Of a stretch of 64,000 nt of DNA, positions 31,649-36,608 are shown in pieces. The stretch comes from a bacterium (lineage in GTDB: Bacteria > UBP6 > UBA1177). The DNA is taken from positions 151,723-215,722 of the forward strand of contig JAGCUA010000069.1 of NCBI GenBank assembly GCA_017963125.1, read 5' to 3'. Position 1 is the first letter of the stretch; each line of letters begins with the position of its first letter. The position numbers were made by a program, and so were the translations under genes. The notes below the pieces were generated by a model. It was not told the DNA's origin and made no database searches. It saw only the letters and a list, made by a program, of their open reading frames with translations.

Positions 31649-34009
31649 ATGACTTCCACAAATACTTTTCCCTTATTCTTATACAACGATATCGTTGTGT
31701 TTCCGTTTTATTCGTTCACGATCTCCGTTGAAGATTTAAATGAATACGAAGTTTTCAACAAAGCCTTCAATAAAGAAGAACCTGTAGTAGTGGCGGCGTT
31801 TAAGAAACTTCCCGACGATCCTGAAAAAAGCATTTTTCTTCCGGTTGCGACATTGTGCGACGTTCTTCATATCGAAGAAGTTGAACCCGGCAAATCAAAA
31901 GTCGTTCTCGCCGGAGCAAAGCGCGTTATTTTCCATTCATACGAAAGGAACCCGAAGACCTCTCTTTTTACGGTAAAAGTCAAAGATTTCAAAACGGTAT
32001 ACCCGAAAGAAAAAGAGCGTATAGTAATTATAAGAAGAGTTCTCGAAGACTCAATCCAGAGATACTTCGATCTGGCAGGATTCCCGCCGGAAAAGGCGAA
32101 ACAGATGATTGAGGAAGAGAATCTCGAGGATTTTGCGGACTGCTGCGCCGCTTCTCTTGACCAGTCGATGGATCGTGAAGGTTTCCGCGAAGTACTAGAA
32201 GAAGCGAATATTGAAAAAAGGATACTCCGTCTGGTGAACATCATTTCAACAGAGACGAATGTCGTAACGATCGAAAACGAAATCGATGACGAGGTTCACG
32301 ACCGCTTTGAAAGAAGCCAGCGCGAGCAGTTTTTAAGAGAGAAGATCCGCGTCCTCAACGAAGAACTGAACGGCAGCGATGTTCAGTATACTCCGGATAC
32401 AGATCAGAACATAGGTAACATCAACTTCGACATAAATTCGTTCCATGCTCCGGAATATGTCAAAGAGCGCCTGAAAACCGAGCTTACGAAGGCGGCCCGC
32501 ATACCTCAGTTTACTCCCGAGCAGGAAGTCATCAGAAATTACATCGAAACGATCCGCTCTCTTCCTTGGGAAGAGTCGACAGAATGCGAGATCGATATCG
32601 AACGCGCAAGAAAGCAGCTTGATAATGACCATTACGGTCTTTCCGAAGTCAAGGACAGGATCCTGGAATATCTCGCAGTCCTCAAACTTTCCGGCAATCT
32701 CAAAGCTCCGATAATCTGTCTTGCAGGCCCTCCCGGAGTCGGCAAAACAAGTATCGCCTCTTCTCTTGCGGCTGCAACGGGAAGAAAGTTCATCCGTCAG
32801 TCTTTAGGCGGTCTCAGGGATGAAGCGGAGATCCGCGGTCACAGACGTACCTATTTAGCTGCAATGCCGGGGAAGATCATCCTTTCGCTTCAAAAGGCAA
32901 AAGTCAACAACCCCTTGTTTTTATTAGATGAAATCGATAAACTCGGCGCAGATTACAAAGGAGATCCTTCTTCAGCTCTTCTCGAAGTTTTAGATCCCGA
33001 GCAGAACAAAACCTTCACAGATCATTTTCTTGATCTTGAATTTGACCTCAGCAATGTCCTTTTCGTTGCTACAGCCAACGATAAAAACAAAATCCCGGTC
33101 GCACTGAAAGACAGAATGGAAGTGATCGACATCGACGGCTACACCGCTTTCGAAAAGAAAAACATCGCGAAAAACCACCTTATTCCGAAAGAAAAAAGAC
33201 TCAACGGAATCGAAGACGTCGATCTTGAATTTACAGAGTCTGCTCTTGATTTAATAATAAAATCATACACTTGTGAATCTGGTGTCAGAGAGCTTCAAAG
33301 AAAGATTGCTTCTGTTTGCAGGAAAATCGCTCTTGCAAAAGCTGAAGGAAAATCTGTCGATGAAACGATCACGGAAGAAAACATTAAAAACTATCTCGGA
33401 GTAGAAAAATATTCCGAAGACACGATCGGAAAAAAACCCGAAATAGGCGTCGTCAACGGTCTTGCGTGGACCCCCTACGGCGGAACAGTACTGAAAATCG
33501 AAGCGATAAAGTATGCCGGAAAAGGCGGCATCGAAGTTACCGGCAGTTTAGGCGATGTAATGAAAGAATCTGTAAAGATTGCAGGCAGTTACATTCGTGC
33601 ACTCTTCTCAAAAAATAAAATTGTTGAAGATGAAATCTGGGACAAATCGATCCTTCACATCCACTTCCCTGACGGCGCTACTCCGAAAGACGGTCCTTCG
33701 GCGGGCGGCGCGATATCGTTGGCGATAGCGTCACTAATGTCGGGAATAGCTGTAAGCCACGAAGTCGCAATGACGGGCGAAGTATCGCTCAAAGGAAAAA
33801 TCCTGAAGATCGGCGGACTAAAGGCAAAAGTCCTTGCAGCAAAACAGGCCGGGATCAAAAAACTTTTCATACCAGAAGAGAACCGCGGCGACTTCAGCGA
33901 AATACCGGATGAAATCAAGAAAGGTCTCGACGTTCAGTTCGTTACCGACTGTGCCGAGATCCTTAAAAACTGCCTTCCCGGCATAAAATTAGATCAGACT
34001 TCTTTGTGA
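31649..34009 (+). CDS. lon: ATP-dependent protease Lon
   Basis: The 786-residue protein has an N-terminal substrate-binding domain (LFLYNDIVVFPF start), a coiled-coil middle, and an AAA module with Walker A GPPGVGKTSIAS and Walker B PLFLLDEIDKLG. The C-terminal Ser-Lys protease domain includes the catalytic Ser in KDGPSAGGAISLA. It degrades damaged and regulatory proteins in the cytoplasm. GGAG lies about 10 bases before ATG. Its end overlaps the convergent DUF523 gene by 16 bases. Confidence 0.98.
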   Translation: MTSTNTFPLFLYNDIVVFPFYSFTISVEDLNEYEVFNKAFNKEEPVVVAAFKKLPDDPEKSIFLPVATLCDVLHIEEVEPGKSKVVLAGAKRVIFHSYERNPKTSLFTVKVKDFKTVYPKEKERIVIIRRVLEDSIQRYFDLAGFPPEKAKQMIEEENLEDFADCCAASLDQSMDREGFREVLEEANIEKRILRLVNIISTETNVVTIENEIDDEVHDRFERSQREQFLREKIRVLNEELNGSDVQYTPDTDQNIGNINFDINSFHAPEYVKERLKTELTKAARIPQFTPEQEVIRNYIETIRSLPWEESTECEIDIERARKQLDNDHYGLSEVKDRILEYLAVLKLSGNLKAPIICLAGPPGVGKTSIASSLAAATGRKFIRQSLGGLRDEAEIRGHRRTYLAAMPGKIILSLQKAKVNNPLFLLDEIDKLGADYKGDPSSALLEVLDPEQNKTFTDHFLDLEFDLSNVLFVATANDKNKIPVALKDRMEVIDIDGYTAFEKKNIAKNHLIPKEKRLNGIEDVDLEFTESALDLIIKSYTCESGVRELQRKIASVCRKIALAKAEGKSVDETITEENIKNYLGVEKYSEDTIGKKPEIGVVNGLAWTPYGGTVLKIEAIKYAGKGGIEVTGSLGDVMKESVKIAGSYIRALFSKNKIVEDEIWDKSILHIHFPDGATPKDGPSAGGAISLAIASLMSGIAVSHEVAMTGEVSLKGKILKIGGLKAKVLAAKQAGIKKLFIPEENRGDFSEIPDEIKKGLDVQFVTDCAEILKNCLPGIKLDQTSL

Positions 34010-34503
34010 GAAAAAACTTTTTCCAGAAATTCATTTGTTTTTGCAGGATCTTTCAGGTCTTCTTCCGTCATGACCGGAACATTCGGAAAAAGTTTCATGA
34101 CTTGAACGGCAAAAAAGCCGCTTGCATCAGTAGAAATAAGTTCGTCGCTTTTTCCGCGGTAGAGTTTCGTGTTTCCGACGCCGCAGCTCGGGCTTTTCGC
34201 CTTCAAAAAGAATCCGTCGACATCTTTCAATGTTTTCAAGTAGTTATTGGAAGCTTCGATCATTTTTTCAGTGAAGAACTTTCCCGTTTCCGGCTGAAAA
34301 AGAAGATTCTTTCCGTCAATTTTCACGATTCTGATTTTTTCACGCGGACATCCTAAACCGATAGCCGTTTCAGGGCACCAGTGAACGATCTCGGCCTGTT
34401 GTTTGAGCTTTTCGGCAAACTCGCAGAAAAAATCCTTTCCGTCGTATCTGCATTTGTCAAAACCGAAGCATCTGCTCATGTAAATCAAAGGTCTGCCGCT
34501 CAT
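33994..34503 (-). CDS. DUF523 family protein
   Basis: Start ATG 34503 (GAGAGG four bases upstream) gives 169 residues. The family pattern is clear: CFGFDKCRYDGK near the start, then CPE-AIGLGCPREKI, and KAKSPSCGVG with conserved Cys residues, which suggest metal or cluster binding. The family function is unknown. The gene is convergent with lon and the last 16 bases overlap. Confidence 0.85.
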   Translation of the reverse strand: MSGRPLIYMSRCFGFDKCRYDGKDFFCEFAEKLKQQAEIVHWCPETAIGLGCPREKIRIVKIDGKNLLFQPETGKFFTEKMIEASNNYLKTLKDVDGFFLKAKSPSCGVGNTKLYRGKSDELISTDASGFFAVQVMKLFPNVPVMTEEDLKDPAKTNEFLEKVFSHKEV

Positions 34504-34622
34504 TTTGCCTCTCAAAAAAACAAGTTTTCTTACTCCTTTTCAGCAAAAAATCCATCAAGATCCTTCAGGTCTTAAAGTCCTTGGGACATTAAAGCCTTAT
34601 AGAGTTTTTAACTGGTGAAAAT
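34504..34622. other. Gene-free spacer with short repeated words
   Basis: Between DUF523 and the RNA promoter lies a stretch with repeated CCTT words (GATCCTTCAGGTCTTAAAG, CCTTGGGACATTAAAGCC). I see no gene or clear structure in it. Confidence 0.4.
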
Positions 34623-34650
34623 TTGACTCTTTTCGAAAGAAGACTACTAT
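34623..34650 (+). promoter_or_regulatory. Sigma-70 promoter of the 6S-like RNA
   Basis: TTGACT (34623-34628) and TACTAT (34645-34650) are 16 bases apart in a gene-free region. The expected transcript start, about 34655-34657, coincides with the start of a long pairing stem. This is one of the best promoter matches in the window. Confidence 0.65.
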
Positions 34651-34654
34651 TTTC

Positions 34655-34815
34655 GAGCCTGCCCGGTGCGTGAGCTTGGGGCGTTAGAAGTTTTTTCCTA
34701 TTTAAATTTTGGGGTTTGTACTTACTACCGTGAATGATGATCGGTTCGGCTTTCCCCACCTGTGAGCACAGGATAAAGCTTGCTTTGGGCCACGGCTGCG
34801 GCGGGTTTCTTGTTT
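34655..34815 (+). ncRNA. ssrS: Probable 6S RNA
   Basis: This region of about 160 bases has no open frame and begins right after a strong promoter. Its ends pair (CGAGCCTGCC at 34654-34663 with GGCGGGTTTC at 34800-34809, with a few G-U pairs). Next comes a 5' bubble CGGTGCGTGAGC. The 3' bubble has a small hairpin CCTGTGAGCACAGG and the sequence ACGGCTGCGGCGGG, close to GCCTGCGGCGG of E. coli 6S RNA. A run of eight T at 34813-34820 ends it. Size, open central bubble and 3' hairpin fit 6S RNA, which binds sigma-70 RNA polymerase. SRP RNA and tmRNA hallmarks are absent. Confidence 0.6.
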
Positions 34816-34844
34816 TTTTTCTGAAAATCCGGGATTTCCGGTTA

Positions 34845-36521
34845 TTACTTTTTTGAGCCTTTTTTCTGGTTCACAAGGTGCGTGTAGAGCGTTCTTCTTA
34901 TCTTTTTTGTCGATGTTTTCTGGAATTCTTCGGGATGTATCCTGATTTCTGAAATTTTTGCATAAGCTGGAAGAGTTTCATTCAGTTCGGCACGGTTCTG
35001 CTGCATGATTTCCGCAACCTGCTCTTCTGTGATATTTTCAGCCTTCATCTTGTCATAATCGGGATAGACAAACGCTATCAGCCGCCCTTTGCCGCCGTCA
35101 AGAACGAGCGACTCCGAAACAAACGGCATATAATTTATCTTGAGTTCGATCTCTTCCGGATAGATGTTCTGGCCGGACGAAGAAAGGATCATGTTTTTCA
35201 GTCTGCCGCATATAAACAGGAATCCGTCTTTGTCGATCCTGCCAAGGTCGCCGGTGTGGAGCCATCCTTCGCTGTCGAGAACTTCGGCGGTCTCCTTCTC
35301 CATTTTGTAGTATCCGCTCATTATGTTTTCGCCTTTGACACAGATCTCGCCTACTCCTTTTTTGTCGGGATTATCGATTTTTGCAGTTAAGTAAGTCATG
35401 ATTTTTCCGCAGCTGCCGATCTTGCGGTTATCGGCATAGTCGGTGTATGCAATAAGCGGTGCGCACTCGGTCATTCCGTAACCGGTAGTGAATCTGACAC
35501 CTGATTTGAGAAGGAACGATTCGATTTTCGGGTTGAAAGCTGCGCCGCCGGAGATGACTTCGTAGCATTTTCCGCCGAAGAAAGCGCTTATCCCCTTCCC
35601 TATTTTCTTCATTATTATCTGTCTGATGCCGGGGATCGCCATAAGTATTTTCATTTTTTTGGTGTCAAGCAGCGGACGGATCTTGGAAGTATATATTTTT
35701 TCAAGGATAAGCGGCACCGAAATGACTAAAAACGGCTTGGCTTCGCTGAAAGCCTTGATGAGTATTTTCGGTGTCGGTGTTTTGCTCATGAAAATGATGT
35801 GAAGTCCTCTTGCGACCTGAAGAAGGAAGTCGAAAGCGCAACCGAAGCAGTGAGCTAAAGGGAGAAACGAAACCATAGCCTCACCGCCTTTCGGAAGTGA
35901 ATCAATGGCATACTGGATGTTCGCCATAAGACAGTTGTGCGAAATCATTACACCTTTTGAAAAACCGGTCGTTCCCGATGTGTAGACTATCGTTGCGAGG
36001 TCAGTCTTTGCAGGAATTTCAAAAGCGAGCGTTTCTTTCGTAACAGCTTGTGTTTTAACGAAATCATCAATAATTCCGGCAACTTTTTCATTAAGATTTT
36101 CTTCCTTTGAAAACGCCGCCGACATATCTTCGAGTTTGAAAACGGCCTCTATTTCCGGAAGCTGCGCGAAATCGAGTTTTTCTATTATGAGTTCCGAAAC
36201 AAAAAAGAGCTTTGAATCGGAGTGGTTGACAAGATGATGGATCTCTTCAGCCGTAAAATCGTTGAGAAGCGGAACGATTACGGCACCGTAAGTCACGGCT
36301 GCAAGGTAAGTTACCGCCCAGTTCGTCGAATTTTTGCCGCAGAGAGCGATTTTGTCGCCTTTTTTTATACCGAGAGCTTTGAATATTTCATGTAACTCTT
36401 TTATTTTATTTGCAGTTTCTCCGAAAGTAAGAGGCTCAGAGCCGTAATCGCTGAAACACGGTTTATCCCAATTCAGTTTAAAGGAATCTTCAAAAACTTT
36501 TACGAGATCTTCTTTCAACAT
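34845..36521 (-). CDS. AMP-forming long-chain acyl-CoA synthetase
   Basis: Start ATG 36521 has GGAGGGG four bases upstream and gives 558 residues; TTG 36539 is a weaker alternative. Adenylate-forming motifs are present: IVYTSGTTGFSKGVMISH (P-loop), TGYGMTECAPLIAYT, GWLHTGDLG and the C-terminal Lys in STKKIRR. The enzyme activates a carboxylic acid with ATP to an acyl-AMP and then to acyl-CoA; FadD/FAA1-type fatty acid ligases are the closest type by eye. The exact acid cannot be told. Confidence 0.9.
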   Translation of the reverse strand: MLKEDLVKVFEDSFKLNWDKPCFSDYGSEPLTFGETANKIKELHEIFKALGIKKGDKIALCGKNSTNWAVTYLAAVTYGAVIVPLLNDFTAEEIHHLVNHSDSKLFFVSELIIEKLDFAQLPEIEAVFKLEDMSAAFSKEENLNEKVAGIIDDFVKTQAVTKETLAFEIPAKTDLATIVYTSGTTGFSKGVMISHNCLMANIQYAIDSLPKGGEAMVSFLPLAHCFGCAFDFLLQVARGLHIIFMSKTPTPKILIKAFSEAKPFLVISVPLILEKIYTSKIRPLLDTKKMKILMAIPGIRQIIMKKIGKGISAFFGGKCYEVISGGAAFNPKIESFLLKSGVRFTTGYGMTECAPLIAYTDYADNRKIGSCGKIMTYLTAKIDNPDKKGVGEICVKGENIMSGYYKMEKETAEVLDSEGWLHTGDLGRIDKDGFLFICGRLKNMILSSSGQNIYPEEIELKINYMPFVSESLVLDGGKGRLIAFVYPDYDKMKAENITEEQVAEIMQQNRAELNETLPAYAKISEIRIHPEEFQKTSTKKIRRTLYTHLVNQKKGSKK

Positions 36522-36608
36522 TTTCCCCTCCGGAAGCAAACGACCTGCGAAAAATAGCGTTTTTAAGGTTATGTGTCAACAATAGAACCGCTATTTATTG
36601 TTTTAAAC

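What the first reader, a model, noticed from the sequence alone, without database searches (positions are those of the whole stretch)
34623..34820. Unannotated RNA gene that fits 6S RNA
A promoter, a long closing stem, an open central bubble with a 3' hairpin, the ACGGCTGCGGCGGG segment and a T-run fit 6S RNA, and no protein frame explains this 160-base stretch. Protein-only gene finding would miss it.
Basis: partly seen in the sequence, partly recalled or inferred. Interest (0 to 1): 0.62.

Follow-up and report, generated by a model that had tools for sequence, protein, structure and literature searches.

The report
Divergent 6S RNA gene, below Rfam cut-off
This stretch is the gene for 6S RNA, a well-known bacterial RNA that imitates an open promoter and ties up RNA polymerase; here it sits in a poorly studied rumen bacterial phylum (UBP6) and is so divergent that standard annotation thresholds miss it.

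Summary
Window 34655-34815 (+) encodes a 6S (SsrS) RNA. Rfam RF00013 matches 34653-34811 end to end with 36.0 bits and E about 1e-5. That is below the curated cut-off of 46.4 bits, so routine annotation would skip it. It is the only credible hit in the 2.76 Mb genome.

I settled the sub-threshold call by comparison. RF00013 finds one copy in 20 of 28 genomes of the phylum, one of them over the cut-off. My own covariance model, built without any Rfam-accepted 6S RNA, adds three genomes that RF00013 misses altogether. Outside the phylum, such a model hits only three loci, and all three are 6S genes over the RF00013 cut-off.

The structure has covariation support: 9 of 33 pairs change on both sides, and none of 500 shuffles does as well. 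A sigma-70-type promoter holds a fixed position across three families. In a fourth family the gene lies between zapA and rny, the zapA side as in E. coli.

Most likely mechanism: an open-promoter mimic that sequesters primary-sigma RNA polymerase and is released by short product RNAs. That part is inferred. It is a new member of a known kind, of modest interest. What is useful is the gap in Rfam coverage.

The parts
34623..34650 (+). sigma-70-type promoter: TTGACT, 16 nt, TACTAT
   Evidence: TTGACW and TANNAT at nearly the same distance (-10 ends 2-6 nt before the model start) in 20 of 20 genomes of families f1-f3.
34655..34815 (+). 6S (SsrS) RNA gene; transcript ends approximate
   Evidence: RF00013 hit 34653-34811, 36.0 bits, E 1.4e-5, model 1-187/187; orthologues across the phylum.
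34656..34671 (+). closing (terminal) stem, 5' arm
   Evidence: Pairs with 34792-34807 with one bulge on each side; 95% of cells paired in 20 genomes, 3 pairs with two-sided change.
34688..34698 (+). inner (P2 / downstream) helix, 5' arm AAGTTTTTTCC; predicted pRNA template region
   Evidence: Pairs with 34771-34781; 98% of cells paired in 20 genomes, 4 pairs with two-sided change. Template role inferred by analogy.
34699..34710 (+). 5' strand of the central bubble, TATTTAAATTTT
   Evidence: Unpaired in the RF00013 alignment; AT-rich in the genus. pRNA start is inferred to lie here.
34711..34714 (+). apical stem base, GGGG (pairs with CCCC 34754-34757)
34727..34745 (+). apical hairpin stem ACCG/CGGT
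   Evidence: 2 of 4 pairs with two-sided change.
34759..34772 (+). 3' central-bubble hairpin CCTGT-GAGC-ACAGG; its two outer pairs compete with P2
   Evidence: 2 of 3 inner pairs with compensatory change (in one genome); 100% of cells paired.
34771..34781 (+). inner helix, 3' arm GGATAAAGCTT
34792..34807 (+). closing stem, 3' arm with the conserved ACGGC..GCGGCGGG segment
34806..34820 (+). T-rich tail, probable 3' end / termination
   Evidence: Sequence; T-rich tail in all 20 aligned relatives.

Best explanation
It is the 6S (SsrS) RNA of a UBP6-phylum rumen bacterium, transcribed from its own primary-sigma-type promoter. The folded RNA is a rod with an open central bubble that mimics melted promoter DNA. 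It occupies the active cleft of primary-sigma RNA polymerase holoenzyme and so holds down housekeeping transcription in nutrient-poor phases. When nucleotides return, polymerase copies a short product RNA from the 5' bubble strand into the P2 helix; this opens P2, lets the 3' bubble hairpin grow from 3 to 5 pairs, and ejects the RNA. Shown here: gene, homology, structure, promoter, phylum-wide conservation. Inferred from characterised 6S RNAs: transcription, polymerase binding, pRNA synthesis, release.
For: RF00013 full-length hit, E 1.4e-5 locally and 1.2e-5 genome-wide, single copy. RF00013 hits at E <= 4.2e-5 in 20 of 28 phylum genomes, one over the cut-off (49.4 bits). A model from the relatives, with no Rfam-accepted member in it, recovers family f3 (E 1e-13 to 1e-18). 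Rebuilt with f3 (R2), it hits outside the phylum only three loci, G063 C1:329018, G115 C67:106325 and G104 C12:170625, which are RF00013 hits of 49.5, 52.9 and 107.2 bits. Covariation: 9 of 33 pairs and 20 cells, 0 of 500 shuffles as high; slid controls 0-3 pairs. Promoter at a fixed place in f1-f3. zapA - RNA - rny order in family f4, compared with zapA-ssrS in E. coli. The genome encodes a sigma-70-family protein with region 3 in a 677-aa frame. Mechanism from PMC8876501 and PMC8414754.
Against: The RF00013 score is below the curated cut-off, or absent, in 27 of 28 phylum genomes. Model R1 scores E. coli ssrS at the right place but without significance (7.7 bits, E 0.73). Model R2 does not reach family f4 of the same phylum, which is tied in through RF00013 and zapA synteny only. 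The gene is not next to zapA in this genome, where no ZapA hit was found. No expression or binding data.
Confidence: 0.96

Rival explanations
1. A 6S-like RNA that has drifted to another polymerase form, as Ms1 of Actinobacteria binds the core enzyme without sigma: homologous in shape, different in binding partner.
For: Ms1 resembles 6S RNA in structure but binds the core enzyme (PMC9130861 abstract); score below the RF00013 cut-off.
Against: RF00013 itself gives a full-length hit, and the reciprocal model lands on RF00013-accepted 6S genes; no other Rfam family matches at E below 9. The bubble, P2 and 3' bubble hairpin that serve holoenzyme binding and release are kept.
Confidence: 0.03
2. 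An unrelated structured element (terminator, attenuator or leader of a neighbouring gene) that matches the 6S model by chance.
For: Sub-threshold score; folding energy close to shuffles.
Against: Orthologues lie at different genomic places: beside the AMP-binding ligase in the window genus, beside a pseudouridine synthase-like gene in other families, between zapA and rny in f4. So it is not tied to one gene. E about 1e-5 to 1e-8 in 20 genomes, own promoter, covariation.
Confidence: 0.01

Closest known systems
6S / SsrS RNA, Rfam RF00013 (E. coli ssrS)
   Same: Rod with closing stem, inner helix, open central bubble, apical stem; conserved ACGGC..GCGG 3' segment; own promoter; single copy; about 160-190 nt; zapA neighbour in family f4.
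   Different: 36.0 bits, below the 46.4 cut-off; about 160 nt with a shortened apical part; AU-rich P2 helix; 5-bp rather than 9-bp 3' bubble hairpin; not beside zapA or ygfA (fau) in the window genus.
B. subtilis 6S-1 RNA
   Same: A short 5-bp 3' central-bubble hairpin predicted, as described for 6S-1 (PMC8876501).
   Different: Here the two outer hairpin pairs use the same GG as P2, so full hairpin and full P2 exclude each other, which is closer to the gamma-proteobacterial switch.
Ms1 RNA of Actinobacteria
   Same: 6S-like structure (PMC9130861).
   Different: Ms1 binds core polymerase and is known from Actinobacteria; no sequence or family match here.

Membership tests
6S RNA (RF00013) | Match to the family covariance model over its full length | tested here: met
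   Model 1-187/187, 36.0 bits, E 1.4e-5; 1.2e-5 genome-wide.
6S RNA (RF00013) | Score over Rfam's curated cut-off (46.4 bits) | tested here: not met
   36.0 bits. This is a conservative curation threshold rather than a biological feature: the phylum relative G026 passes at 49.4, and the reciprocal model finds accepted members.
6S RNA (RF00013) | Closing stem, internal helix, open central bubble and apical stem, supported by covariation | tested here: met
   96% of cells paired, 9 of 33 pairs with two-sided change, 0 of 500 shuffles as high.
6S RNA (RF00013) | Homology to accepted 6S RNAs shown in the reverse direction | tested here: met
   Model R2 hits outside the phylum are three RF00013-accepted loci only. 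Against E. coli ssrS with model R1 the result is not significant.
6S RNA (RF00013) | Independent gene with its own promoter and a terminator-like end | tested here: met
   Promoter at a fixed place in 20 genomes; T-rich 3' tail in all 20 aligned. Sequence evidence only.
6S RNA (RF00013) | Conserved gene neighbourhood (zapA) | tested here: inconclusive
   Met in family f4 of the phylum (zapA-RNA-rny); not in the window genome, where no ZapA was found. Neighbourhood is not required of a 6S RNA.
6S RNA (RF00013) | Abundant transcript that binds primary-sigma RNA polymerase holoenzyme | not testable with these tools
   No expression or binding data. The genome encodes one sigma-70-family protein with region 3.
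6S RNA (RF00013) | Template for product RNA (pRNA) | not testable with these tools
   An antisense read into P2 carries the GG dinucleotide typical of pRNAs (PMC8414754). The start base is ambiguous.
Ms1 RNA | Actinobacterial 6S-like RNA that binds core polymerase without sigma | not testable with these tools
   No binding assay; sequence and structure point to 6S RNA.

The most novel reading that the evidence does not exclude
A lineage-specific 6S variant with an unusual release switch. P2 is AU-rich with an A-rich pRNA (5'-...UAGGAAAAAACUU), and its top two G-C pairs are shared with a 3' bubble hairpin of 5 pairs (7 possible in family f3). Release may therefore need only a very short pRNA, in cells that encode a single sigma-70-family protein with region 3, so that 6S RNA acts as a global brake rather than a switch between sigma factors.
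Probability: 0.15. Interest if true: 0.45.

Novelty: new member of a known kind. Interest (0 to 1): 0.27.

Why it matters
It extends 6S RNA to candidate phylum UBP6, with 23 of 28 genomes carrying it, and shows that the standard Rfam cut-off would report it in only one of them. Three of five genomes in one family are invisible to RF00013 even at E = 10 but are found with a phylum-specific model. Claims that a lineage lacks 6S RNA should be checked this way.

Tried and rejected
- Rfam at default thresholds: only a tRNA in the whole window.
- Other Rfam families at this locus: only chance-level matches (PreQ1 E 9, sR28 E 9.4).
- Folding energy as evidence: not significant.
- RNAalifold consensus over all 20 sequences including family f4: poor (-5.3 kcal/mol), because the f4 apical parts misalign. 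Structure counts were therefore made on f1-f3.
- Model R1 against E. coli ssrS: right place, not significant.
- Protein-coding reading: no plus-strand frame is open; the 56-codon minus frame is broken in several relatives.
- Absence in five genomes: G018, G022 and G024 also lack the neighbouring pseudouridine synthase-like gene that their relatives carry beside the RNA, so assembly gaps are likely. G005 and G011 are 77% and 72% complete; cause unresolved.
Two 6S survey papers were not held.

Full report
OBSERVATION. The stretch lies between a 2-thiouracil desulfurase-family gene (33994-34515, -) and an AMP-binding ligase gene (34845-36539, -), downstream of a lon-type protease gene (31649-34009, +). 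Read on the + strand it holds a sigma-70-type promoter (TTGACT 34623, 16 nt, TACTAT to 34650), a closing stem, an inner helix, an AT-rich open strand, a 3' bubble hairpin, ACGGCTGCGGCGGG and a T-run. No plus-strand frame is open across it. The one minus-strand frame (56 codons) is broken by stops and indels in several relatives.

FAMILY TEST. At Rfam's default thresholds nothing is reported here. With E-value reporting, RF00013 (6S) matches 34653-34811 over model positions 1-187 of 187, 36.0 bits, E 1.4e-5. In the whole genome it is the best hit (E 1.2e-5); the next has E 2.1. The match is therefore significant but below the curated cut-off of 46.4 bits, and needed independent support.

COMPARATIVE TEST. 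The DNA is conserved at 85-96% in 12 of the 14 other genomes of the genus and at 75-79% in other genera of the family. RF00013 scores E <= 4.2e-5 in 20 of 28 genomes of the phylum, one of them over the cut-off (G026, 49.4 bits). I built a covariance model (R1) from 17 of these RNAs, none of them over Rfam's cut-off. R1 recovered three further genomes of family f3 (E 2.7e-18, 7.5e-17, 1.8e-13) where RF00013 had no hit even at E = 10. That gives 23 of 28. Three of the five genomes without a hit (G018, G022, G024) also lack the pseudouridine synthase-like gene that neighbours the RNA in their relatives, which fits assembly gaps.

RECIPROCAL TEST. A second model (R2, 20 RNAs of families f1-f3) was run over 146 genomes. 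Outside the phylum it gave three hits: G063 C1:329018 (44.6 bits, E 4.2e-9), G115 C67:106325 (33.3 bits, E 7.8e-6) and G104 C12:170625 (28.1 bits, E 1.9e-4). RF00013, run over the same genomes, calls exactly these loci 6S over its cut-off (49.5, 52.9 and 107.2 bits). A model that has never seen an accepted 6S RNA finds only accepted 6S RNAs outside its own phylum. I regard this as decisive for homology. Against E. coli ssrS directly, R1 puts a match exactly at the annotated 5' end but without significance (7.7 bits, E 0.73).

STRUCTURE. On the 20-genome alignment, 96% of cells pair, 9 of 33 pairs change on both sides (20 cells), and no shuffle of 500 reaches these values. Slid controls give 37-55% paired and 0-3 such pairs. 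That alignment was fitted to the structure, which favours it; on the MAFFT alignment of 17, not fitted, the result is 7 of 36 pairs and 9 cells, again 0 of 500. The 3' bubble hairpin has two compensatory pairs of three, both from one genome.

PROMOTER AND CONTEXT. TTGACA or TTGACT, 16-17 nt, TANNAT, ending 2-6 nt before the model start, is present in all 20 genomes of families f1-f3. Gene neighbours change between families: the AMP-binding ligase in the window genus, an RsuA/RluB-like pseudouridine synthase in others, and in family f4 a ZapA gene upstream and an RNase Y gene downstream (Pfam ZapA E 3.7e-11; RNase_Y_N E 4.7e-26). E. coli ssrS also follows zapA (PMC7641849). The RNA is thus an independent gene and not part of a neighbour's leader. 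The names RsuA/RluB are my reading of the sequence and were not profile-tested.

MECHANISM. 6S RNAs bind primary-sigma holoenzyme as open-promoter mimics and are released when polymerase copies a pRNA from the 5' bubble strand into P2 (PMC8414754; PMC8876501). Here P2 is 34688-34698 with 34771-34781 and the 5' bubble strand is 34699-34710. Reading antisense into P2 gives 5'-UUUAAAUAGGAAAAAACUUCU; the GG that is typical of pRNAs is conserved in all 20 genomes. Gram-negative pRNAs have GG at positions 4/5 and a conserved upstream adenine (PMC8414754). No single start base satisfies both rules here, so the start is left open. The hairpin CCUGU-GAGC-ACAGG shares G34771-G34772 with P2, so opening of P2 would let it grow from 3 to 5 pairs; in f3 the sequence allows 7 (sequence reading). 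That resembles the extended hairpin of gamma-proteobacterial 6S RNA that drives release (PMC8876501). Binding, pRNA synthesis and release are inferred, not shown.

ORGANISM. The locus in genome G012 of the same genus coincides with contig DBYV01000035.1 (76,237 bases), titled bacterium UBP6_UBA1177. Other relatives come from rumen and gut samples of ruminants. I found no paper in the held library reporting 6S RNA in this phylum, but the library is partial.

VERDICT. It is a new member of a known kind. The one point of more general use is that the family's default threshold misses nearly the whole phylum.

Noticed in passing
L083, L084, L085 (1501-1672): Family f3 6S RNAs are invisible to RF00013 even at E = 10 but score E 1e-13 to 1e-18 with a phylum model; their 5' bubble strand can also pair with the P2 flank (AGTAG...CTACT).
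   Followed up: partly
L045, L055, L062 (1501-1688): In family f4 the 6S RNA lies between a ZapA gene and RNase Y (Pfam-tested for L045 and L062), a possible ancestral neighbourhood that families f1-f3 have lost.
   Followed up: partly
G000:C83:17935-18162 (-), L104: Only one sigma-70-family protein with region 3 (open frame of 677 aa) was found in this genome, so 6S RNA here may not act by shifting polymerase between region-3 sigma factors.
   Followed up: partly
window 34829-34841: A small terminator-like hairpin (CCGGGATTTCCGG) lies between the 6S RNA and the convergent ligase gene; it may serve one or both. Conservation not tested.
   Followed up: no
G115:C67:106325 and G115:C67:121585: A distant genome carries two RF00013 hits 15 kb apart (52.9 and 39.7 bits), possibly two 6S paralogues.
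   Followed up: no
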